IMG/VR virus record: IMGVR_UViG_3300008459_009564
Span: 1-36,348 of that record
DNA from: a virus
Length of the DNA: 36,348 nucleotides
Strand: one strand, 5' to 3'
Shown here: positions 5,762-35,009 of the stretch, piece after piece
Layout of the letters: every line of letters starts with the position of its first letter
How positions within the stretch are numbered: position 1 is the first letter of the stretch
The notes under the pieces: model-generated
What the model was told of the DNA's origin: nothing
Seen by the model: the letters and a program-made list of their open reading frames with translations, nothing else
Databases searched by the model: none
Program-made: the position numbers and the translations under genes

Positions 5762-7639
5762 TTAATCCTTTGTTTTTAGTTCTTGGAAGTAGCTTGGAAG
5801 TATTCCAGAGTTTGCGAATCCATCTCCATATGCTCTTTGTACGCTGCGCTTAAAGTAATCGCTAAGAGCGGACGGAGCGGCAGTATTCGTCACTGCACCC
5901 GAAGATTTTACCATGTCCTGGACTGCCTGTATGCCCGAATCAATGGCTGAACCTTGAGCATTAGATAGTCGAATGCTGTTGTATTCTCCATAGGAGTTGT
6001 ATGCACTGGCCGGATCCTGTAACTTGGTGAAAGTCATGTCACCTCCACCCATGTTAAACATGGACTCAATGTCCTGTTTCGCTCGAGGTCGACCTGGCTC
6101 CAGGCTAAGGCTAAACTTTACTCCTACTGGAAAGTCACTGTCTCCCAACTCCTCAGTAAACGCTACTGTTGTAGTCTTTAAACACAGATTTCCTATTACT
6201 GCGACTGGATCCATTGGGTTACCTACCGTGAGGTGCCATTCTCCCACTGCTCGACCGTCAAGAAGCGCACGTAGGACAAGAGGTTTTTGATAGAGTCCAG
6301 AGAGTCTGGCTGAGACTATGTCCTGCAAGACAGGATTTTTTCCAGCGGCAGTCGTTAGCTTTGTTATAGTTTCTTCTAGATTGGTCGCTGCATCAAACTC
6401 AGATCCTAGGCTATCTAAGAAGTTCTTTAATTCTGATGCCTTTTCAACAGTCAGTCCTCCTAACTGGGTCAACATGTCCTTTGCTCCCTCAATCGCATTT
6501 CCCTGTTCAAGCTTTTCATTATTTAATCCTAGTGCCAGATAGCCGGTCTTTTGAAAGTATCGATACGATCCTCCCCAAAACAGAGCTCGGTTGTAGGTCA
6601 AGGACAGGAAGTTGCTCATTAGGTCAAGCATGGCCACTTTAGGATTCACGTTTCCATAAGATCTCATGGTGTATTCAAAGTCTAGTTTAATCTGGTGAGT
6701 GAATACATATCCTTTCTCTCTAAGCTTGGTCTTGTCGATGACATTGATCGGCCCTAGTACTCGGTTCCAATATGCACCGTTCTGCCACGAGTCCTTAACG
6801 AACTGTTGTAGAGTCGCGTCATATCCGCTGGCTTCAAAAGGATTGTTTGGGTTCTGAAAGAAGATCGCAGTAAGAGCTGCCCGAAGAGTCTCAGCGTCCT
6901 TCTTTACTCCAAGAGCGTCAAGTACCTTTCCGGCCTCAACCTCATTTCCTTCAACGTCCTGTACGGTTGCGGTCGCATCGTCCTTCCAGTTAAATCCATA
7001 GCTCATTCCCAAGATGCTGCTTAATGTGTTGCCGGATCCTCCTCCCCACCAAGTCACGGCTTGCGCCAAAGGAATCAGTGGCAGGTTTTGCTGAGCGACT
7101 CCCAAGTTGTCCTCAACAGGAATCGGATATCGTCTCAGGGTAAGCAATCTATTGTTAGGAATCTTCCCATAGTACTTACACCATAAAAAGTCATTGTATT
7201 GGTATGGAGAAGGATATAACGGCCCTTCCTTACTTGACGCTTTCTTTTGTGATTCAGCGATTATGATCGATGCAGTAGGGTTCTCAATCACCTTCCTTCT
7301 CTCTTCATGCAGGACGTCTGCTCCAAGTATTGAGCTCTGGTAGGTGAACCTGTGTTTAGTAACATCATAGACTCCTGCCGAAACATCAGACGCTCCGCTT
7401 GCGAAATGAGCGTACCTAAATATGTAAAAAGGATTGAATAATGAATCCGTTCCTATCACAGGAATCGCTGATCCTGCAGGACCGTCTGCTCCTCCTAAGT
7501 AACTTCCGTTTATGTAAGTAGAAGTACTGTCTGCAATCGCAGAATCAGTCAAGCCGAGTATTCCCCTAGCCTGAGCTTCAGTTGGATCCACATTCTGTAG
7601 AATGTTATTGTTATCTCCCTGATTGGGCCAAATTGACAT
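5762..7639 (-). CDS. Large putative virion/baseplate protein, first gene of the tail operon
   Basis: A 625-aa protein that I do not recognise as a named family. The N-terminal half contains FNPFYIFRYAHFASGASD and DFLWCKYYGKIPNNRLLTL with RRYPIPVEDN. The C-terminal third has AVGEWHLTVGNPMDPVAVIG, then TVAFTEELGDSDFPVGVKF and SLEPGRPRAKQDIE. These are beta-rich, with the look of a tail-tube-type domain near the end. It is led by its own late promoter box and has AAGGA about 10 bases before the ATG. Overlap and short gaps bind it to the hub, LysM and spike genes, so a baseplate structural role is likely. Confidence 0.62.
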   Translation of the reverse strand: MSIWPNQGDNNNILQNVDPTEAQARGILGLTDSAIADSTSTYINGSYLGGADGPAGSAIPVIGTDSLFNPFYIFRYAHFASGASDVSAGVYDVTKHRFTYQSSILGADVLHEERRKVIENPTASIIIAESQKKASSKEGPLYPSPYQYNDFLWCKYYGKIPNNRLLTLRRYPIPVEDNLGVAQQNLPLIPLAQAVTWWGGGSGNTLSSILGMSYGFNWKDDATATVQDVEGNEVEAGKVLDALGVKKDAETLRAALTAIFFQNPNNPFEASGYDATLQQFVKDSWQNGAYWNRVLGPINVIDKTKLREKGYVFTHQIKLDFEYTMRSYGNVNPKVAMLDLMSNFLSLTYNRALFWGGSYRYFQKTGYLALGLNNEKLEQGNAIEGAKDMLTQLGGLTVEKASELKNFLDSLGSEFDAATNLEETITKLTTAAGKNPVLQDIVSARLSGLYQKPLVLRALLDGRAVGEWHLTVGNPMDPVAVIGNLCLKTTTVAFTEELGDSDFPVGVKFSLSLEPGRPRAKQDIESMFNMGGGDMTFTKLQDPASAYNSYGEYNSIRLSNAQGSAIDSGIQAVQDMVKSSGAVTNTAAPSALSDYFKRSVQRAYGDGFANSGILPSYFQELKTKD

Positions 7640-13337: not shown

Positions 13338-13895
13338 TTAGATCTCGGCTTTAGGTTCTTCAGTAGGAGCTTGACCTGGAGTCTTTTCCTTGGCTTCAAC
13401 CTTTGGCTCTGATTTTTTCTGTTTTGCTTTATTTATTGAGTCTCTAATACTCTTCGCGTCCATACCTATTGAAATGGTCGCAACGTTGTCTGAATCTTCT
13501 TTGTTCTCAGAGAAGTACTCAGCAATCTTTTTTAGGTTCATATTTAGATCACTACCGAATCCTCCAGCCTTTTCTATCTTGTCCTTAAGGCTTTCAGTGG
13601 CTTCAAATGAACCTGTATATGCGATCGACCAGCAGTAAAATCTTACTTGCTCGCCGTTTCCTGAATAATATCTTTGCAGTTCTTTAATTCTTTGAATGGC
13701 ACCGTTTGCGTCTCTAGAAGTAAGAGCCTTTCCCAAGTAATCAGATGGAACTCCGAATCTCACGCGGTCTGATAGCACATCCATTAGCTCCTCTATTCGT
13801 TGGATTAAGGTCTCTGCCTTGTAGCCTCTTAAAGATTTAGACGATTCTTCAGCTTCGTTCACGTACTGAAAATAGCTTCGCATATATTTTGCCAT
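13338..13895 (-). CDS. Putative packaged head protein with targeting sequence VNE|A
   Basis: A 185-aa protein with N terminus MAKYMRSYFQYVNE|AEES, fitting the internal-protein targeting pattern: basic/aromatic stretch then V-N-E|A (residues 12-15). The rest is soluble and charged, with helices such as KAETLIQRIEELMDVLSDRV and a basic, Ala/Pro-rich end (KQKKSEPKVEAKEK). No enzyme motif was found. It has a late promoter box 17 bases before its ATG, as expected for a virion protein. Adjacent genes on the same strand are the kinase (upstream) and ligase fusion (downstream), so those may share late transcripts. Exact role unknown. Confidence 0.72.
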   Translation of the reverse strand: MAKYMRSYFQYVNEAEESSKSLRGYKAETLIQRIEELMDVLSDRVRFGVPSDYLGKALTSRDANGAIQRIKELQRYYSGNGEQVRFYCWSIAYTGSFEATESLKDKIEKAGGFGSDLNMNLKKIAEYFSENKEDSDNVATISIGMDAKSIRDSINKAKQKKSEPKVEAKEKTPGQAPTEEPKAEI

Positions 13896-17745: not shown

Positions 17746-18087
17746 TCAGTAGTTACTCATGTCCCAATTAGGTTCATCTTCGCCAGTCTCAGGATTTCTT
17801 AAAAGGTCTAGCGCGTGTTCTAAACCTGCCTTTATATCCTCAATTGAATTATAAGAAGACATTCCACTAACAAACATTTTAGCTAGCTTACGATCTCCGC
17901 TTAATTCTGTAAACAACATCTCTAATTGAGTTTGCTCTTCTGGAGTAAGCTCATCATATTGAGCCTTTTGTCCCCTTCCTCCAACTAGTTCAGATCTAAG
18001 TCGAGTTGATTTACTCTCTGGCTCTGAGCCATAATAGTATCCTTCATTTATGAATCGACCGAAAGGTTTTACATGATTTCTTTTCAT
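17746..18087 (-). CDS. Putative packaged head protein with targeting sequence INE|G
   Basis: A 113-aa protein beginning MKRNHVKPFGRFINE|GYYYG, with I-N-E|G at residues 13-16, as in the other head-targeting signatures. The rest is acidic to neutral and helical (TQLEMLFTELSGDRKLAKMF, ALDLLRNPETGEDEP). No catalytic motif. A late promoter-like box (TAAATAAATAAA) lies upstream, 16-27 bases from the ATG. It is convergent with uvsW and separated by the hairpin terminator. Function unknown. Confidence 0.72.
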   Translation of the reverse strand: MKRNHVKPFGRFINEGYYYGSEPESKSTRLRSELVGGRGQKAQYDELTPEEQTQLEMLFTELSGDRKLAKMFVSGMSSYNSIEDIKAGLEHALDLLRNPETGEDEPNWDMSNY

Positions 18088-18872: not shown

Positions 18873-19499
18873 TCAGTATATTTTAGCAGCGATCACGACA
18901 CCAAGTATTATCCTAGAGTAGTGTAACTGAAAGTTAAGAAAGCCAGTAACGGCTTTGAATTGTCTTTCTGAGTATTCAGTAGACTTTATTGAGGCCTCAC
19001 TCAGTTTCTGTAAGCCTAATTTTATTTTGGATGTTAAGACAGTATCGTATATTCCCAAGAACTCGTTAAGTATCTCGCCGAAGTCTAGGCTCAACATGTG
19101 GTCGCAACCAAGTTCCTTAGTGAATTTTTTACCTAGTTTTATTGCTTTGCTCTTTTGGATCAGGTCATCTTCTTCTAGCGCCTTGTCGATGGTAAGTCGA
19201 ATCGCATCCATCTTCTTGATCCTTTCAGACTCTTCCGCTATCCAATCAAGGTCATCCCTTGAGACAGATATCGCAACCTTTGAGTCATTATCATAATAAT
19301 AAAAGCTTACGGTTTCAGTCATTCCGCTCTCTCCTATCATGTCAATTAGAAGCGGAGATATTCCCAACTGTAAGTAATCTTTCCCTTTCTCCTCTAACTT
19401 AATGTCGTATTCTTCGAACGGAAATACCGACATAAAGGGAAGGGCTGAGAACAGGTCTTTCGTCTTGTCTAGACTGCTTTCGTTTTCGAGCTCTTCCAT
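18873..19499 (-). CDS. Unknown acidic protein upstream of phoH
   Basis: A 208-aa acidic protein beginning MEELENESSLDKTKDLFS. It has a beta-like central part (ETVSFYYYDNDSKVAISVS), then helices (EESERIKKMDAIRLTIDKA, IQKSKAIKLGKKFTKEL). The C terminus is more hydrophobic (HYSRIILGVVIAAKIY) and could be a buried or membrane-touching helix. I do not recognise a family. The late promoter box lies 16 bases upstream, so it is probably a late gene. It is divergent from the DNA polymerase fragment. Confidence 0.65.
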   Translation of the reverse strand: MEELENESSLDKTKDLFSALPFMSVFPFEEYDIKLEEKGKDYLQLGISPLLIDMIGESGMTETVSFYYYDNDSKVAISVSRDDLDWIAEESERIKKMDAIRLTIDKALEEDDLIQKSKAIKLGKKFTKELGCDHMLSLDFGEILNEFLGIYDTVLTSKIKLGLQKLSEASIKSTEYSERQFKAVTGFLNFQLHYSRIILGVVIAAKIY

Positions 19500-19523: not shown

Positions 19524-19616
19524 TGACTTTTACAGGTCTTAAGTTTAAGGTCCCTCGAAGATTTAGTATTTTATTTAAGATCAAAACTTAAGCGTCTAAA
19601 AAAGTATAACTTTTAT
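19524..19616. other. Divergent intergenic region with inverted repeat and -10-like site
   Basis: Contains CTTAAGTTT (19538-19546) and its exact complement AAACTTAAG (19584-19592), separated by 37 bases. TATAAC (19605-19610) lies 6 bases before the polymerase ATG, within AAAAGTATAACTTTT (19600-19614), itself an inverted repeat. The plus-strand frame of the polymerase is open back to TGA at 19524 but has no standard start codon. Confidence 0.55.
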
Positions 19617-21050
19617 ATGGAGGACAAATCAAAGAAAATAAAAAAGCTGGATCTAAAGCAGAATGCGATCAAGATCCTAATTAACTCGATATACGGAGCA
19701 TTCGGTAACAAGTGGTTCTATTTTTACAATCCGGATATCGCTCAATCGATCACCCTTCAGGGTCAAGACCTAATAAAGTTCTCCATCAAGGCTGTGAATC
19801 ACTATTTTCAAGAGAGATGGCACCTCGATAAGGAGCTGCACAGTCTACTTGGACTTGATGGATATACTATAAACAAGATAGATGATGTCGCAGCGATCTA
19901 TACTGACACTGACTCGATCTATGTACAGTTTGACTCTGCGATAGATTCGATAATCGGTGCAAACTTCACAAAGGAAGAGATCCTTAACATCTGTATCAAT
20001 ATCGACAAACATCGACTCTCTAGTTATTTCGACCAGTGTTTCGAAAGATACGGAAAGATATTCAATACGAAGAACCGACTTAAATTCAAATTGGAAAACC
20101 TTTCTGAACACGGAATCTGGTTAAAGAAGAAGAACTATGCTATTCGAGTGGCATATGAACCCAATCCTAGCTATGAGACTATTCCTCAAGAGAAGAGATA
20201 CCTTGTGATCAAGGGTCTCGAATCCATCAAGGGATCGTATCCAATCTGGGCCAGAAAAAAGCTTGAATCGCTTTACTCATTTATTCTAAATCGAGGTAAA
20301 CGTCTCGACATTGAGAAGGACATCATTCCGACTCTTCTTGAGATCAAGAAAGAGTTCATGAGCCTGCATCCAGACGAGCTTGCATTCAACTATAAGATTA
20401 GGGTCTATAATAAATACGTAGCGAGTGAGGCTAAGCTCGACTTAAAGAAGGGCATATCAATATTCCCAAGAGCAGCTGCCATCTACAATCACACTCTAAT
20501 CAAGACCAGTCTGACTGATCGCTATCCAAAGTTGAGAGAAGGTGACAAGATCAAGTTTTATTACTGTAATCCTGAAGAGAATGACGGTGGATTTGACGTG
20601 TTCGCCTATTCTCCAGGTTCTTATCCTGATGAAATCGTTCCCAAGATGGACATGAATCTGCAGTTCTTCTCACTAATCGTCGAACCCATCAATAGGTTTC
20701 TTTTTGCGATGAACCTAGGTCAACTCGATCAAAACTTAAAAAGAGCAATTGAAGTGGTCACGATCAAGAGCAAGAAAGTTCTATCTCAAAACCTAACTCA
20801 TCCTCTCTTTGTAGTAGATCAAGCTAGTCTACAATACGAGCCTGTGCCCGAGAAGTTTTGGACAACTATTGGTAATCCAGAGAAGGAGGTCGAGACGCAA
20901 GACTTTCAAGAATATCTTAGCGTCATTACTCGATATGGTCTAAACTCAGTAATAGTCCCAGAGCCAGAGCTTGAAAAGTACATCAAGCGTCTCTCTAAAA
21001 AGAAGGAAAAGGTAGAGTCTGAACTTGAGGTAGAGGAAGAAAATGTTTGA
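19617..21050 (+). CDS. 43: Family B DNA polymerase, C-terminal half (split gp43)
   Basis: A 477-aa protein that begins just before polymerase motif B. DLKQNAIKILINSIYGAFGN (12-31) is motif B, YTDTDSIYV (95-103) is motif C with the catalytic Asp pair, and KKKNYAIRV (170-178) is the KKxY motif. The following IKGLESIKGSYPIWARKKL matches the thumb start in T4 gp43 (KIMGLE, SSTP). The exonuclease domain and motif A are absent, so this is only fingers/palm-end/thumb. Aeromonas phage Aeh1 and relatives are known to have split gp43, so a second gene for the N-terminal part is expected outside the window. It overlaps the primase gene by 8 bases. Confidence 0.86.
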   Translation: MEDKSKKIKKLDLKQNAIKILINSIYGAFGNKWFYFYNPDIAQSITLQGQDLIKFSIKAVNHYFQERWHLDKELHSLLGLDGYTINKIDDVAAIYTDTDSIYVQFDSAIDSIIGANFTKEEILNICINIDKHRLSSYFDQCFERYGKIFNTKNRLKFKLENLSEHGIWLKKKNYAIRVAYEPNPSYETIPQEKRYLVIKGLESIKGSYPIWARKKLESLYSFILNRGKRLDIEKDIIPTLLEIKKEFMSLHPDELAFNYKIRVYNKYVASEAKLDLKKGISIFPRAAAIYNHTLIKTSLTDRYPKLREGDKIKFYYCNPEENDGGFDVFAYSPGSYPDEIVPKMDMNLQFFSLIVEPINRFLFAMNLGQLDQNLKRAIEVVTIKSKKVLSQNLTHPLFVVDQASLQYEPVPEKFWTTIGNPEKEVETQDFQEYLSVITRYGLNSVIVPEPELEKYIKRLSKKKEKVESELEVEEENV

Positions 21051-22176
21051 TATCTTGACCAATTACAGTATACCTGAATTTGTTAGAGACCTCCTAAAAA
21101 AGAGGTTTCCTGGAGACAGGTTAAAACAGACTGTACACGACGCTGGAGATAAGCTTAACTTTGCATGCCCTTACTGTGGGGATTCCAAGACTGATTCCAA
21201 GAAGAAGAGAGGTAACCTCTATCCTGAGAGAGGATTCTATAAGTGTTACAACGACGGGTGTTCCATCAAGGTGGATACTGCAAAGTTCGTCTCAAAATAC
21301 GCTCAGACGTATGGATTAGAGATCCCAAGCGTCAAGGCTGTTGAACCGCAATGGGTACACAACACTTCCAAGAAGAAAAAAGGCTCCCTTATCGAGCTCC
21401 TAATAAATCGAAACATCGGATCATCCCTATTAGAAATAGATTATCTGGTCTCTAGGTTTTCTTTAACTCCCTGCAAAGAGGCCGACTTTGGATCTAGAAT
21501 AGGGCAGTTTGTGGAGAGTCGAGGACTTAAAGGAATACCCACATTTGATGACTGTTGCTACTTCGATTCAAGCCAGAACAAGGTGTATCTCTTTAACGTC
21601 GACCTAAAATCAAAGAAGATCTTGGGATTTGCTATTCGTCGATTAGACCAAGTGAGCGGTCCAAAGTACTTGATCAAGAACTATGCTGAACTAAAGAAAA
21701 ACGGGCTAGTTCCTTCGCTAAACGATGAGGTGATAGGGGACATAGATTCTCTGAATAATTACTTTAACGTTTTTAACGTTGACTTCACCAAGCCAGTCTT
21801 TGTGACTGAGGGTCAGATTGATGCAATGTTTCTTCAAAACGCGATAGCCACGACTGGAGTCTCTAAGAGTAAGCTGCTTCTTGAGAACCTTCTCTCTAAG
21901 AACTCTGCCCTCATCTTCTTCGATAGTGACCTTGCTGGAAAAAAGCAGTCGATTGAGCTCATTAAGAAAGGATATCGAGTCTTCCTATGGAGCAAGGTGA
22001 TGAATGACTTAAAAATAAAGTACAAAGCCGATCGATTTGAAGTGTCTCTAATAAAAGACGTTAACGACTTGTTCCAATTCATTCATTCAAGAGAAGAAGG
22101 GTTCGGGTTTGACGAATTTAACTCATTTGTTCTAGATTACTTTTCAGAATCGCCTCTAGATCTCATCTTGGTGTAG
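21043..22176 (+). CDS. 61: DNA primase, T4 gp61-like (zinc finger plus Toprim)
   Basis: A 377-aa protein with an N-terminal zinc-binding domain: ACPYCGDS (Cys42, Cys45) and YKCYNDGCS (Cys68, Cys73). The Toprim domain shows VTEGQIDAMF (254-263, catalytic Glu) and FFDSDLAGK (292-300, DxD). Between them, YLFNVDLKSKKILGFAIRR is the conserved pre-Toprim strand set. Primases of this kind make RNA primers for lagging strand synthesis together with the gp41 helicase. The start overlaps the polymerase end by 8 bases, suggesting coupled translation. The TAG stop shares its G with the late promoter of the next gene. Confidence 0.88.
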   Translation: MFDILTNYSIPEFVRDLLKKRFPGDRLKQTVHDAGDKLNFACPYCGDSKTDSKKKRGNLYPERGFYKCYNDGCSIKVDTAKFVSKYAQTYGLEIPSVKAVEPQWVHNTSKKKKGSLIELLINRNIGSSLLEIDYLVSRFSLTPCKEADFGSRIGQFVESRGLKGIPTFDDCCYFDSSQNKVYLFNVDLKSKKILGFAIRRLDQVSGPKYLIKNYAELKKNGLVPSLNDEVIGDIDSLNNYFNVFNVDFTKPVFVTEGQIDAMFLQNAIATTGVSKSKLLLENLLSKNSALIFFDSDLAGKKQSIELIKKGYRVFLWSKVMNDLKIKYKADRFEVSLIKDVNDLFQFIHSREEGFGFDEFNSFVLDYFSESPLDLILV

Positions 22177-22202: not shown

Positions 22203-22508
22203 ATGAAAAGAAGAATTTTATCGCTTAGAGACTATCGTCTTTATGAGTCTATCGATGAAAACGTTGACTTAAACATTGATACTGCTATCCTAGATGAGCT
22301 AGTTGAACTCGTTGGATCAGAAGAGGACGTTGAAGAGGCTGCAAAAGCTGCTTTTGAGGACTTATCGGCTGCCGCTAAATCTAATCAAGTTGAAATGACG
22401 GAAGGCGACGTTCCTGAAAAGCTAGCGATGGCTGCATTACTAGTAAAACTTGTTGAAATGGGAAAACTCGATCCAACTAATGCTGATAAGCTCATGGAAA
22501 AAGTATAA
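22203..22508 (+). CDS. Small putative packaged protein with targeting site LYE|S
   Basis: A 101-aa acidic protein beginning MKRRILSLRDYRLYE|SIDEN, giving L-Y-E|S at residues 13-16. The rest is helical and acidic (ELVELVGSEEDVEEAAKAAF, KLAMAALLVKLVEMGKLDP). T4 internal proteins and the core protein gp67 are similarly small and charged. A late box precedes it and a strong terminator follows, so it is a single-gene late unit. No enzyme motif is visible. Virion-internal location is inferred from the site. Confidence 0.75.
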   Translation: MKRRILSLRDYRLYESIDENVDLNIDTAILDELVELVGSEEDVEEAAKAAFEDLSAAAKSNQVEMTEGDVPEKLAMAALLVKLVEMGKLDPTNADKLMEKV

Positions 22509-26994: not shown

Positions 26995-27438
26995 TTATTG
27001 ATTTTTACCTGTTCCGCTTCCCTTCTCGTCGCTAAATCTAACGCTAGACTTATCGATTGAGAGGTTGAAGTCTTTGTCTCCCATTGAGCGACCTAACGCT
27101 CTTAGGTTTTTCTTAGCGACGACATTATCCTGCTTAGCTGCACGACCAGTAGAATTCCTCATCACTTGATCTATGGCCTGTTGCTTGATATTTTTCTTCC
27201 AATCGCTATGAAAGATCATGTTCATCGCTCTAGTGATATCGACTTCCTGTATGTCGCCGTTATATCGATTTGGATTTCTTGCAGCCTTTTCATTCGCGAG
27301 CTCTCTGGCTATAGCCATAATCTGAGAATAAAGTCCAGCCAACGCGCCTTGTACCATGCCCTTAAAATTAGTAGGGTACACCACCTCCTTAGTAGCTTCA
27401 TTGATGAATTGATTATATGACTTTATCTTTCTCTCCAT
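26995..27438 (-). CDS. Putative packaged head protein with targeting sequence INE|A
   Basis: A 147-aa protein opening MERKIKSYNQFINE|ATKEV, almost identical in shape to the T4 internal-protein signal (MKTYQEFIAE). The protease site I-N-E|A is at residues 12-15. The remainder is strongly helical and basic (AIARELANEKAARNPNRYN, QAIDQVMRNSTGRAAKQDN), with a Ser/Asp/Lys C-terminal tail. A DNA-binding internal protein would fit the charge. The stop of the upstream gene overlaps its start region. Function in the host unknown. Confidence 0.78.
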   Translation of the reverse strand: MERKIKSYNQFINEATKEVVYPTNFKGMVQGALAGLYSQIMAIARELANEKAARNPNRYNGDIQEVDITRAMNMIFHSDWKKNIKQQAIDQVMRNSTGRAAKQDNVVAKKNLRALGRSMGDKDFNLSIDKSSVRFSDEKGSGTGKNQ

Positions 27439-28816: not shown

Positions 28817-29290
28817 TTATCTTTTCCCATTCAAGTCAACCATGTACTTACCCTTAGTGATTGCATTCTTACCTATGATACATGGAAATTTCATATTGCC
28901 TCTATCCGTAAGAGACACCTGAACCCTAATCTCGTCATTCCCTATCTTAAGCATAGTCCTAATTCGGTAGCGGTCCTCAGACTTGCCTGAAGAATTCTTG
29001 ACCTTTACTTTATCAAATTTTGAGAATTCTAGACGATTAGATGGAGATTTTATCCAAAATGAAAGAACCCCATTTTTAACTTTAATGTCGTTTGCGTCGA
29101 TTGAAGTTCCATCTGCTCCAGTATCAATCTTAGCTTTAATGCTAGACACTTTAAGCTCAGGAAAAGATACTTTTTCAGTGGACCCTAATGATCTTCGAGG
29201 ATTTGAACCATAGTAATCCCAAGCTCCTGGGTTCTGATGGATCTCTGATGAAGTTATGAACTCCTTAAAACTCTCTACTAGCCTTTTCAT
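28817..29290 (-). CDS. Retropepsin-like (RimB/ATP-dependent zinc protease family) protein, head-targeted
   Basis: A 157-aa protein with the aspartic-protease-like motif AKIDTGADGTSIDA (Asp56-Thr-Gly58-Ala), flanked by FPELKVSSIKAKI, and a C-terminal strand region (RIRTMLKIGNDEIRVQVSLT, MKFPCIIGKNAI). These match the retropepsin-like RimB/DUF785 family, labelled ATP-dependent zinc proteases, in order and length. The N terminus MKRLVE|SFKEFITSSE has L-V-E|S (4-7), so it may be packaged in the head like its neighbours. The start overlaps the upstream gene stop by 4 bases. Substrate unknown. Confidence 0.75.
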   Translation of the reverse strand: MKRLVESFKEFITSSEIHQNPGAWDYYGSNPRRSLGSTEKVSFPELKVSSIKAKIDTGADGTSIDANDIKVKNGVLSFWIKSPSNRLEFSKFDKVKVKNSSGKSEDRYRIRTMLKIGNDEIRVQVSLTDRGNMKFPCIIGKNAITKGKYMVDLNGKR

Positions 29291-32349: not shown

Positions 32350-33261
32350 TTATTTTCCTTTAGAAGCCTTGATCAAGTTCTTAGCTAGAGTATTTCTCTT
32401 ATGGGTCTTAGCATCCTTCTTGTCAAGCTGAAGTCCAGGTTTCTTTTTATCTTTGTCCTTCTTCTTAAGTTTTGCCTCGCTCTTATCGATGTCAGATATA
32501 TTCATCTTCTCACCTTTTTTCATTCCCATTTCCTTGCGAAGAGCTCCCTTCTTCATGTCTCCAACAACTCCTCCGATCCATTTGTCTTTCTTAGCTTCAT
32601 TTACGAATTGTGAGAAGCTCATGATTCCCCTAGACTCCTGTACTCCAGGTTGAGTTGCAGTATCCAATTCGCCTTCAACTGGGGCAGCAGGTACAGTTCC
32701 TGAAGTAACTTGACTATCACTAGGCGCGACTCCAGTAGTGCCGACTGGCTGAGCATCAAGGGATTGATCTAGGTTAAATCGTACTGCTACTGGAATAGAC
32801 GTGTCTCCAGTAACGAATTCAGACTGGTATGTTCCTCCGACCATTCCATCCTTCATGTCTTTAAACTGTTCATCACTAATCACAAAAGAGATCGCATCAG
32901 GATCGTCTTGCGAACCAGTGGTCTGTTTTCCAGCTATACTTATCTTCATTGATACAGTAACGACATCTAATGAAGTTTGCTTATTCATGAACTTAGCATC
33001 AGGCTTGAGTAGAGTACCGTCTTTTTCTAACTGTTCAACTTCCGCCTTTGTGAAGAGAGAGTCAAGTATATGAGTCTTCGCAAGCTCTTCAAAGTTTAAG
33101 ACCGCAGGTTCATCAGTAGATGAAACGTTCGCTTTTATTTGAGTCGAATCGCTAGGCACGCTCGCTTCTGGAGCGGCCGGTGTTCCCATTTCTTCTGGGC
33201 TTAGAGGCTCTCCCGCTTGTTCAGCTTCGAATATCTTTGCAAAATTAAAGTACTTATGCAT
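32350..33261 (-). CDS. Putative prohead-core precursor with IFE|A and internal VNE|A sites and basic C-terminal domain
   Basis: A 303-aa protein with N-terminal site MHKYFNFAKIFE|AEQAG (10-13) and a second site SFSQFVNE|AKKDKW (220-223). The first part is acidic and Pro/Ala-rich with a beta segment (TSLDVVTVSMKISIAGKQT). The second part is strongly basic: DKWIGGVVGDMKKGALRKEM, GMKKGEKMNIS, KLKKKDKDKKKPG. The WIG-KGALRK-GMKKGEK pattern resembles a short basic domain I recall in many phage genes. Cleavage would free a basic peptide of about 80 residues that might condense DNA. Late box 18 bases upstream, with AAGGAAA near the ATG. Confidence 0.72.
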   Translation of the reverse strand: MHKYFNFAKIFEAEQAGEPLSPEEMGTPAAPEASVPSDSTQIKANVSSTDEPAVLNFEELAKTHILDSLFTKAEVEQLEKDGTLLKPDAKFMNKQTSLDVVTVSMKISIAGKQTTGSQDDPDAISFVISDEQFKDMKDGMVGGTYQSEFVTGDTSIPVAVRFNLDQSLDAQPVGTTGVAPSDSQVTSGTVPAAPVEGELDTATQPGVQESRGIMSFSQFVNEAKKDKWIGGVVGDMKKGALRKEMGMKKGEKMNISDIDKSEAKLKKKDKDKKKPGLQLDKKDAKTHKRNTLAKNLIKASKGK

Positions 33262-33287: not shown

Positions 33288-34028
33288 TTAATCAGAATAG
33301 ATTTTAGAATAGAGATCAGACATTAAGTCTATCATCTCTTCTATCGTACCTTCCCTTCTTAGTTCCTTGAAGACTAAATTCTCGACTGAGAACTCTCCTC
33401 CTGAAGCAAGACCTGACTTCCGGTCAGCTAATACCTTCCTTTTGAGTCTCTCAACATACTCATACAGGATCTTAGCTTCCATTCCGGAGATAGACTTTGC
33501 TCTCTTCTTCATCATCTCTACTTCTGCCTGAATCACTCTCTTCTTTTCAGAAACGTCCTTTTGATCGATCTGTGGAGGATTGTATTGTGGAACTATTATC
33601 CACTTTCCTTTAAGAAGAGAATAGAGACCTGAAGCGGTGTGTTGTTCGTCTTTGTGTTGTACATAGCATTCCACATCATGTCCTCTAAGGACTACTGGAT
33701 GCCGTTGGTTCCACATAAATCTCTGACCATCCAATGCCTTTCTTACTAAATCGATGTTTGAGTCGACTTGTGAAAAATCAACTATTAAGTGAACATCTAG
33801 GTCAGAGTCACGATTCCAGTTATAGTTAGCCAACGAGCCAGTCAGCTGTACGTCAATGATCGGAACATCGAGCTTTAAGGATTCCCAAAAGTCCTTGGCT
33901 ATCTGTAAGAGAGTCTTTCTGATCTCAGGCTTCATTTGATTTTCCTCCCATATCTTTGGACAGAGATCCTTATGATACTCAACCTTTTCGTTGATCCACT
34001 CGCTAAATTTTCTAGCTCGATTTTTCAA
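33288..34028 (-). CDS. Head-targeted nucleotidyltransferase (pol-beta fold)
   Basis: A 246-aa protein using TTG start at 34028. The N terminus NRARKFSEWINE|KVEYH has I-N-E|K at residues 12-15, matching the head-targeting pattern. It then reads DLCPKIWEENQMKPEIRK and IIDVQLTGSLANYNWNRDSD followed by LDVHLIVDF. That is the nucleotidyltransferase motif G64-S65 with D76-x-D78, in a family seen often in phage genomes. A third Asp is likely in HDVECYVQHKDE. The family transfers nucleotides to RNA, protein or small molecules; which one here is unknown. Late box 19 bases upstream supports virion timing. Confidence 0.78.
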   Translation of the reverse strand: MKNRARKFSEWINEKVEYHKDLCPKIWEENQMKPEIRKTLLQIAKDFWESLKLDVPIIDVQLTGSLANYNWNRDSDLDVHLIVDFSQVDSNIDLVRKALDGQRFMWNQRHPVVLRGHDVECYVQHKDEQHTASGLYSLLKGKWIIVPQYNPPQIDQKDVSEKKRVIQAEVEMMKKRAKSISGMEAKILYEYVERLKRKVLADRKSGLASGGEFSVENLVFKELRREGTIEEMIDLMSDLYSKIYSD

Positions 34029-34076: not shown

Positions 34077-34082
34077 ATGAAT

Positions 34083-35009
34083 ATGAAACACGTTAAATCA
34101 TACTCCTCAATAAATGAGTCAGTTCTTCAAAACGGAATAGTCCTAATCAAGGGAAAGCCTAGAGGTAAGGACAAGGAGAAGATGTTGTATGCAGGTCACG
34201 TGATGAGTTCTGCTGAGCTTAGACCTGGTGCAACCATGCTCTTTATGTCAGACCAGTTCTATAGAATAATAAAAGAAGGAGATCGACTGAAGGGAGTGAA
34301 GATAAACTGGAGGAGTGAAGAGTCACTAAAGGATTCACTAAACTTGAAGTCTCCAGGAAAGATAAGCATCGTTAAGAATAACAATAAGACTCCATATCAT
34401 TGGAAGACACTAAAAGAGACTACAATCTCACAGGCACTAGACAGAGTTAGGGACGACATCGACGGTTCAGATTATCTCTTTGAGTCAGTTGACCAGACAG
34501 CAGGGGGCTCTACTTACGCTAAGTTCGTCAAAGCTGCAGTAGATTCGATATTCGGAGGAGAAAAGAAAGCTGTCGTTCTTTCATGGACTGCGACTGACGC
34601 GATGGATCTCGTCGAACCTGACGAAGACAGTACTGTCGCTGAGCATGAAGCAAAGATTCAATTCATATTTATAGATCCGAGTCTAGTCAAAGAATTAGAG
34701 GAAATGGGTGCAAGCACTAGGGGCGACCTGTACTTAGAGATCTCATCTAACTTGACTTATTCTAGTTGGTATGATCCTGGAGATTACATGAATCCGCCTG
34801 ATGGAGACACTGAGATAACTGATGCTGAGCATGAGATAGTCGACATATCTATAAGTAACGTGGAATATGACGCAAATTTCGTTGAATTTGAACTCAACCC
34901 CATAAAAAAGACCATCAGTACTGCGTTAACTGGATCAAATGACGTTGACGATTTTCTTATCTCTTCTCCTAGATCCTACACAAATTTTGAGAAATATTTT
35001 AATATTTAA
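34083..35009 (+). CDS. Putative packaged protein with targeting sequence INE|S
   Basis: Start chosen at 34083 (MKHVKSYSSINE|SVLQN) because the promoter places RNA start there; an upstream ATG at 34077 would add two residues. I-N-E|S is at residues 10-13. The 308-aa body has VLIKGKPRGKDKEKMLYAGH, LRPGATMLFMSDQFYRII and a beta-rich second half with acidic tail-like stretches (VEPDEDSTVAEHE, SSWYDPGDYMNPPDGDTEIT). No catalytic motif recognised. Virion-internal location is inferred. It is not covered by any other known family in my reading. Confidence 0.72.
   Translation: MKHVKSYSSINESVLQNGIVLIKGKPRGKDKEKMLYAGHVMSSAELRPGATMLFMSDQFYRIIKEGDRLKGVKINWRSEESLKDSLNLKSPGKISIVKNNNKTPYHWKTLKETTISQALDRVRDDIDGSDYLFESVDQTAGGSTYAKFVKAAVDSIFGGEKKAVVLSWTATDAMDLVEPDEDSTVAEHEAKIQFIFIDPSLVKELEEMGASTRGDLYLEISSNLTYSSWYDPGDYMNPPDGDTEITDAEHEIVDISISNVEYDANFVEFELNPIKKTISTALTGSNDVDDFLISSPRSYTNFEKYFNI

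What the first reader, a model, noticed from the sequence alone, without database searches (positions are those of the whole stretch)
19524..21050. Split DNA polymerase with open frame extending upstream of its first start codon
The gene begins at motif B and lacks exonuclease and motif A. In the same frame the sequence stays open from 19527 to the ATG (30 codons, Lys/Leu-rich, encoding SKLKRLKKYNF just before the Met) without ATG, GTG or TTG. That looks like leftover coding sequence from a once-continuous gene, cut by a rearrangement. No intein end is visible, so the halves must join without splicing. Split gp43 is known in Aeh1-type phages, but the exact cut point can be compared.
Basis: partly seen in the sequence, partly recalled or inferred. 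Interest (0 to 1): 0.64.

Follow-up and report, generated by a model that had tools for sequence, protein, structure and literature searches.

The report
Split phage DNA polymerase, C-terminal half
This gene makes only the second half of a phage's DNA-copying enzyme; in related phages the first half is a separate gene far away, and the cut, at one exposed tip of the enzyme, is old and shared by a whole lineage of large uncultured phages.

Summary
The gene is real: 19617-21050 (+) encodes a 477-aa C-terminal half of a T4-type family B DNA polymerase (motifs B and C; no exonuclease, no motif A). The "leftover coding sequence" upstream is not real. It is a conserved promoter (AAACT-N16/17-AGTATAA-N5/6-ATG) read in frame. 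All seven relatives checked in detail have in-frame stops there, and the start codon is conserved. The window is a 36-kb fragment without the N-terminal half, but in ten large contigs of its clade that half is a separate 466-486-aa gene, on the same strand, 48-67 kb upstream. Every N-half ends and every C-half begins at the fingers tip, with nothing missing. Both halves are under strong purifying selection and co-evolve (Mantel r 0.97). All ~160 nearest C-half loci are split, and so are the huge phages checked, Lak included; together they form one clade (99% support). Aeromonas 44RR and Vibrio PVA8 were cut at the same tip independently. No intein or intron lies at this junction, so the halves most likely assemble as two subunits, as reported for phage 25. 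A homing endonuclease directly follows the N-half in Lak and a 462-kb phage, suggesting how the gene first broke.

The parts
19617..21050 (+). C-terminal half of a split T4-type family B DNA polymerase (477 aa): fingers helix P with motif B, rest of palm with motif C, thumb, plus a C-terminal extension of about 110 aa specific to this clade
   Evidence: Pfam DNA_pol_B positions 145-238; phrog_1918 4e-63, phrog_262 positions 498-838; RB69 gp43 556-780; 36 close relatives; dN/dS 0.044 against L032
19683..19697 (+). motif B core NSIYG
   Evidence: invariant in alignment A1
19899..19916 (+). motif C YTDTDS (catalytic aspartates), uninterrupted here; site of inteins in relatives
   Evidence: alignment A1; inteins in L061, L062/L057, L063/L056, L231, L235
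19583..19588 (+). -35-like element AAAACT
   Evidence: conserved AAACT 16-17 nt before the -10 box in most distinct upstream regions
19605..19610 (+). -10-like element TATAAC ending 6 nt before the ATG (probably a leaderless or nearly leaderless transcript)
   Evidence: conserved position 5-8 nt before ATG in most relatives
19527..19616 (+). open but non-coding in-frame stretch that contains the promoter
   Evidence: stops in relatives, p about 0.08 by chance
21043..22176 (+). DNA primase gene (T4 gp61-like), overlapping the end of the polymerase half by 8 nt; probably co-expressed
   Evidence: phrog_47 DNA primase 4e-23; ORF coordinates
18873..19499 (-). divergent neighbour gene of unknown function (208 aa); similar minus-strand ORFs are seen near the C-half in relatives L061-L063
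   Evidence: ORF, similar minus-strand ORFs; no PHROG match

Best explanation
The gene encodes one of two separately encoded subunits of the phage's replicative family B DNA polymerase. The missing subunit (exonuclease, motif A, fingers helix N) is encoded elsewhere in the genome, most likely about 50 kb upstream on the same strand as in its relatives. The two polypeptides meet at the tip of the fingers hairpin, helix N from one and helix P/motif B from the other, and assemble non-covalently into one active site, with no protein or RNA splicing at this joint. Shown by sequence here: the split, its exact position, its fixation across the clade, purifying selection on both halves, their correlated divergence, and the conserved promoter of the C-half. 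Inferred: presence of the N-half in this very phage, physical assembly and activity, and an origin by homing-endonuclease insertion in an ancestor followed by loss of the endonuclease and dispersal of the halves.
For: N-half and C-half are separate genes in 19 large contigs; in the window's clade (10 contigs) 48-67 kb apart, same strand, N first. All 29 N-halves stop at the same place. None of the 160 loci kept from two profile scans has motif A in the C-half ORF (the two scans overlap in part), while the same script reports intact 828-838-aa polymerases in outgroup phages L239-L260. The halves are complementary to within a few residues: Pfam DNA_pol_B 20-143 | 145-238; Deep Vent 381-468 | 471-533; PRK05762 209-492 | 492-545. 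Motif A to motif B spacing, summed over the two halves, is 91-124 aa where both ends could be read, against 112-174 in intact enzymes. dN/dS 0.044 (C-half) and 0.02-0.06 (N-halves) where not saturated. N and C distances correlate, r = 0.972 over 20 genomes, 0 of 2000 permutations. Tree: split clade 99% support. No PolA or PolIII in nine contigs and no second full PolB in any contig searched. No intron RNA family. Precedent: 43A and 43B of phage 25 co-purify and have polymerase activity (PMC2988022). Endonuclease ORF overlapping the N-half stop in LR756500 and Lak-A2.
Against: The N-half is not in the 36-kb window itself. No physical evidence of assembly; AlphaFold models of the single halves were poor (pLDDT 59 and 42). 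The clade sits on a long stem (1.45 substitutions/site), so an intact sister may be unsampled. Endonuclease origin rests on two genomes in this clade and could be later insertion beside an existing break.
Confidence: 0.86

Rival explanations
1. The upstream open frame is a remnant of a once continuous gene cut recently by a rearrangement.
For: 30 open codons without start codon directly upstream.
Against: Not conserved; stops in all seven relatives translated; the stretch is a conserved promoter; the true N-half end is known in relatives and is unlike it.
Confidence: 0.02
2. The halves are joined covalently by protein trans-splicing (split intein) at the fingers tip.
For: Split inteins do occur in this same protein, but at motif C, in relatives.
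Against: N-halves end in plain polymerase sequence with no intein N-terminus, and C-halves start with a short lead such as MED, no intein C-terminus, in every genome examined.
Confidence: 0.02
3. The mRNAs are trans-spliced by a bisected group I or II intron.
For: A group I intron occurs in gene 43 of phage 25 (PMC2993671).
Against: Each half has its own stop or start in frame with conserved protein ends; no intron RNA match; the C-half has its own promoter abutting the ATG, leaving no room for 5' intron sequence in the transcript.
Confidence: 0.01
4. The C-half is a dispensable or decaying copy, and another polymerase replicates the genome.
For: The window is a fragment, so another polymerase could lie outside it.
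Against: Strong purifying selection, catalytic residues invariant, no second complete PolB and no PolA or PolIII found in relatives.
Confidence: 0.05
5. On the origin: the fingers-tip split arose in the ancestor of the whole clade by insertion of a homing endonuclease gene (rather than by a simple stop or rearrangement), and the endonuclease was lost in the window's lineage. This is compatible with the best explanation.
For: An endonuclease ORF (DUF7487/REase_MTES_1575-like) overlaps the N-half end in LR756500, and a similar-looking ORF does in Lak-A2; independent splits at the same tip also have endonucleases nearby: HNH homing endonuclease in Vibrio phage PVA8 and seg43 in phage 25.
Against: Most members, including the window's lineage, have no endonuclease there; phage 44RR has none either; later insertion next to a break is possible.
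Confidence: 0.5

Closest known systems
gp43A/gp43B of Aeromonas phages 44RR and 25 (Biquartavirus)
   Same: Family B polymerase cut at the fingers tip between helix N and motif B; two chains; phage 25 halves co-purify and are active
   Different: Halves adjacent (49 nt apart in 44RR), larger tip insertion, independent origin in the tree; here 48-67 kb apart in relatives and fixed across a deep lineage
Vibrio phage vB_ValM_PVA8 polymerase (Schizotequatrovirus)
   Same: Split at the fingers tip; HNH homing endonuclease between the halves
   Different: Falls outside the split clade; halves 1.1 kb apart; annotated only as hypothetical proteins in the record read
Lak megaphages and huge phages LR756500, LR745206, LR756504
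   Same: Same fingers-tip split, same clade
   Different: Halves elsewhere and in part on opposite strands; endonuclease after the N-half and split intein at motif C in some
PolB split intein of Pseudomonas phage MIJ3 and mini-intein of Salicola phage SCTP-2
   Same: An intein in phage PolB, split with an endonuclease between in MIJ3 (PMC6892783), like the motif-C inteins in relatives of the window
   Different: Joined by splicing; the window's break is at another site and has no intein
Split nrdA of phage Aeh1 (mobE insertion)
   Same: Essential gene in two pieces that work together
   Different: Different gene; Aeh1 gp43 is intact

Membership tests
T4-type family B DNA polymerase (gp43) | Motifs B and C with catalytic residues | tested here: met
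   LINSIYG and YTDTDS in A1; Pfam DNA_pol_B, phrog_262
T4-type family B DNA polymerase (gp43) | 3'-5' exonuclease domain and motif A | tested here: met
   Not in the window, but in the separate N-half of relatives: LDIEIK, GWNVTEFD, YNVIDV, DFSSMYPN, Pfam exo1 and DNA_pol_B
T4-type family B DNA polymerase (gp43) | One continuous gene | tested here: not met
   Split in all loci of the clade examined
Split gp43A/43B of 44RR/25 type | Cut at the fingers tip | tested here: met
   Alignment with 44RR, T4, Syn19
Split gp43A/43B of 44RR/25 type | Adjacent cistrons parted by a short untranslated sequence | tested here: not met
   48-67 kb apart in ten contigs of the window's clade
Split gp43A/43B of 44RR/25 type | Common descent of the split | tested here: not met
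   44RR lies outside the split clade, 99% bipartition
Split gp43A/43B of 44RR/25 type | Two chains form an active complex | not testable with these tools
   Needs proteins
Fractured gene with split intein | Intein halves at the break | tested here: not met
   No intein sequence at the fingers-tip ends; it is met at motif C in relatives
Intron-interrupted gene | Group I or II intron at the break | tested here: not met
   No Rfam match

The most novel reading that the evidence does not exclude
A large lineage of environmental and gut phages, up to 600-kb huge phages and Lak, runs on an obligate two-subunit family B replicase that broke once at the fingers tip in a common ancestor, probably through a homing endonuclease, and whose halves have since drifted apart in the genome under separate transcriptional control. 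The fingers tip is a recurrent breaking point, hit at least three times independently.
Probability: 0.6. Interest if true: 0.65.

Novelty: new variant of a known kind. Interest (0 to 1): 0.52.

Why it matters
Split gp43 was known as a local curiosity of two Aeromonas phages. Here it is the fixed state of a whole lineage of large phages, with the halves tens of kilobases apart, which makes the evolution of a single-chain replicase into a two-subunit enzyme directly testable. It explains why annotation and gene-marker surveys that expect a full-length polB would record fragments in such phages. It also suggests that the fingers tip of family B polymerases tolerates a chain break in nature, repeatedly, which is useful for engineering split polymerases.

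Tried and rejected
Leftover coding sequence: rejected by stops and promoter conservation in relatives. Aeh1 as model: rejected, gp43 intact. Intein or intron at the break: no evidence. Second polymerase in relatives: none found. AlphaFold models of the single halves were too poor to use, so no fold search was run; they may also be poor because each half lacks its partner. A scan of the bacterial and archaeal genome collection for the C-half found nothing, so no host is proposed. The first version of the tree alignment took a wrong motif in T4 and was redone. Literature searches for this clade's split found no description; the two key papers (Petrov 2010, Dassa 2009) are not held.

Full report
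What is in the window. The window is a whole IMG/VR record of 36,348 bases, a linear fragment. The ORF 19617-21050 (+) encodes 477 residues that match the C-terminal part of T4-type family B polymerases: phrog_1918 4e-63 and phrog_262 positions 498-838, RB69 gp43 556-780, Pfam DNA_pol_B 145-238. It starts 22 residues before motif B and contains motif C. No exonuclease domain was found in the record, and this gene is its only DNA_pol_B match.

The upstream open frame. It is not coding. At local composition such a stretch is open by chance about 8% of the time. Translation of the same 90 nt in seven relatives gives stops in all of them, including the closest, L032, 90% identical in protein. In most of the 36 relatives the open frame begins within about ten codons of a conserved MED start. 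What is conserved upstream is a promoter: AAACT, 16-17 nt, AGTATAA, then 5-6 nt to ATG in most distinct sequences. The TAA inside the -10 box is an in-frame stop in those seven relatives; one extra T in the window's spacer shifts it out of frame, which explains why the frame next to the Met is open. The -10 box ends so close to ATG that the transcript is probably leaderless (inference).

Where the other half is. Searching 20 relatives' full records with phrog_262 found separate N-terminal genes in three of the longest; a further 19 records gave 16 more with both halves. In the window's clade the N-half lies 48-67 kb upstream on the same strand in ten contigs. In the sister clade it lies 4-16 kb upstream, with nrdB-like, nrdA-like and clamp-like genes between, and in L307 only the clamp-like gene intervenes. 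The N-half's upstream neighbour, a nucleotide pyrophosphohydrolase, looks the same in both clades, so it is apparently the C-half that moved (inference). All 29 N-halves end at TQGEIK-LKNSK or equivalent.

The cut point. The N-half ends with fingers helix N; the C-half begins with fingers helix P. Profile and structure-bearing alignments meet almost without gap or overlap: Pfam 143|145, Deep Vent 468|471, PRK05762 492|492. Spacing from motif A to motif B summed over the halves is 91-124 residues where both ends could be read, against 112-174 in intact enzymes. 44RR gp43A/gp43B are cut in the same loop.

Function. Catalytic and exonuclease motifs are invariant across the halves. dN/dS is 0.044 for the C-half against L032 and 0.02-0.06 for N-halves where synonymous sites are not saturated. 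N and C distances correlate at r 0.972 in 20 genomes, with 0 of 2000 permutations reaching it; shared descent of the two halves alone would also give a high value. No PolA or PolIII was found in nine contigs up to 429 kb and no second full PolB in any contig searched. Non-covalent assembly is inferred; the precedent is the co-purification and activity of phage 25 gp43A/gp43B as reviewed in PMC2988022.

How old and how wide. Profile scans returned 397 and 160 C-half relatives; the best 80 of each were read. None has motif A in the same ORF and two have it in a neighbouring ORF; the two sets overlap in part. An N-half query returned intact 828-838-aa polymerases in cyanophage/pelagiphage-type contigs, so intact genes are recognised where they exist. 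Huge phages LR756500, LR745206, LR756504 and Lak-A2 are split at the same tip, with halves up to hundreds of kilobases apart and in part on opposite strands. In a maximum-likelihood tree of the C-terminal core all of these form one clade (UFBoot 99, stem 1.45), outside which lie T4, Aeh1, cyanophages, pelagiphage, 44RR and Vibrio PVA8. The fingers tip was therefore cut at least three times.

Origin. In LR756500 and Lak-A2 an endonuclease-like ORF overlaps the N-half stop codon; in LR756500 it carries DUF7487 and a sub-threshold REase_MTES_1575 match; the Lak-A2 ORF was judged by eye only. PVA8 has an HNH homing endonuclease between its halves, phage 25 a seg-type one. An origin by endonuclease insertion is plausible, not shown.

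Second break in relatives. At motif C (DTD|S) relatives carry inteins: contiguous in L061, split with an endonuclease-like ORF between the halves in L062/L057, L063/L056 and LR756500, and split in Lak-A2. These belong to the known kind of fractured genes with split inteins, as reported for MIJ3. The window's copy has none.

Verdict. The finding is a real split polymerase. As a clade-wide and dispersed arrangement it is not described in the papers I could search, but it is of a known kind.

Noticed in passing
L062/L057, L063/L056, L061, L231, L235: The polymerase C-half of several relatives carries an intein at motif C (DTD|S): a contiguous mini-intein in one, split inteins in four, three of them with a free-standing endonuclease-like gene between the intein halves.
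   Followed up: partly
L379 (Vibrio phage vB_ValM_PVA8, 34-3701): An isolated phage has a split gp43 (496 and 366 aa, hypothetical proteins in this record) with an HNH homing endonuclease on the opposite strand between the halves.
   Followed up: partly
window 20700-21047: The last ~110 residues of the C-half have no counterpart in T4 or in the sister clade, whose proteins end in a short SLF-like tail; the usual clamp-binding end seems replaced by an extension.
   Followed up: no
window 17746-18087, 26995-27438, 28817-29290, 32350-33261, 33288-34028, 34077-35009, 13338-13895 and others: Many otherwise unrelated proteins begin with M(K/R)...F..FINEA-like sequences, which resemble the capsid targeting sequence of T4 internal head proteins (recalled from memory, not tested).
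   Followed up: no
window, upstream of many genes (e.g. 5762-7639, 13338-13895, 18873-19499, 22203-22508, 32350-33261): Many genes have a T4-late-promoter-like (G)ATAAATAA stretch shortly before the start and most lack a clear Shine-Dalgarno sequence.
   Followed up: partly
L373-L378, L307: In the sister clade the polymerase halves flank a clamp-like gene, in the L373-L378 contigs together with nrdB- and nrdA-like genes, so the C-half follows the apparent sliding clamp gene.
   Followed up: partly
L064 1222-1965: An exonuclease-like protein (weak match to the polymerase exonuclease part) lies close to a groEL-like gene in the 207-kb contig.
   Followed up: no
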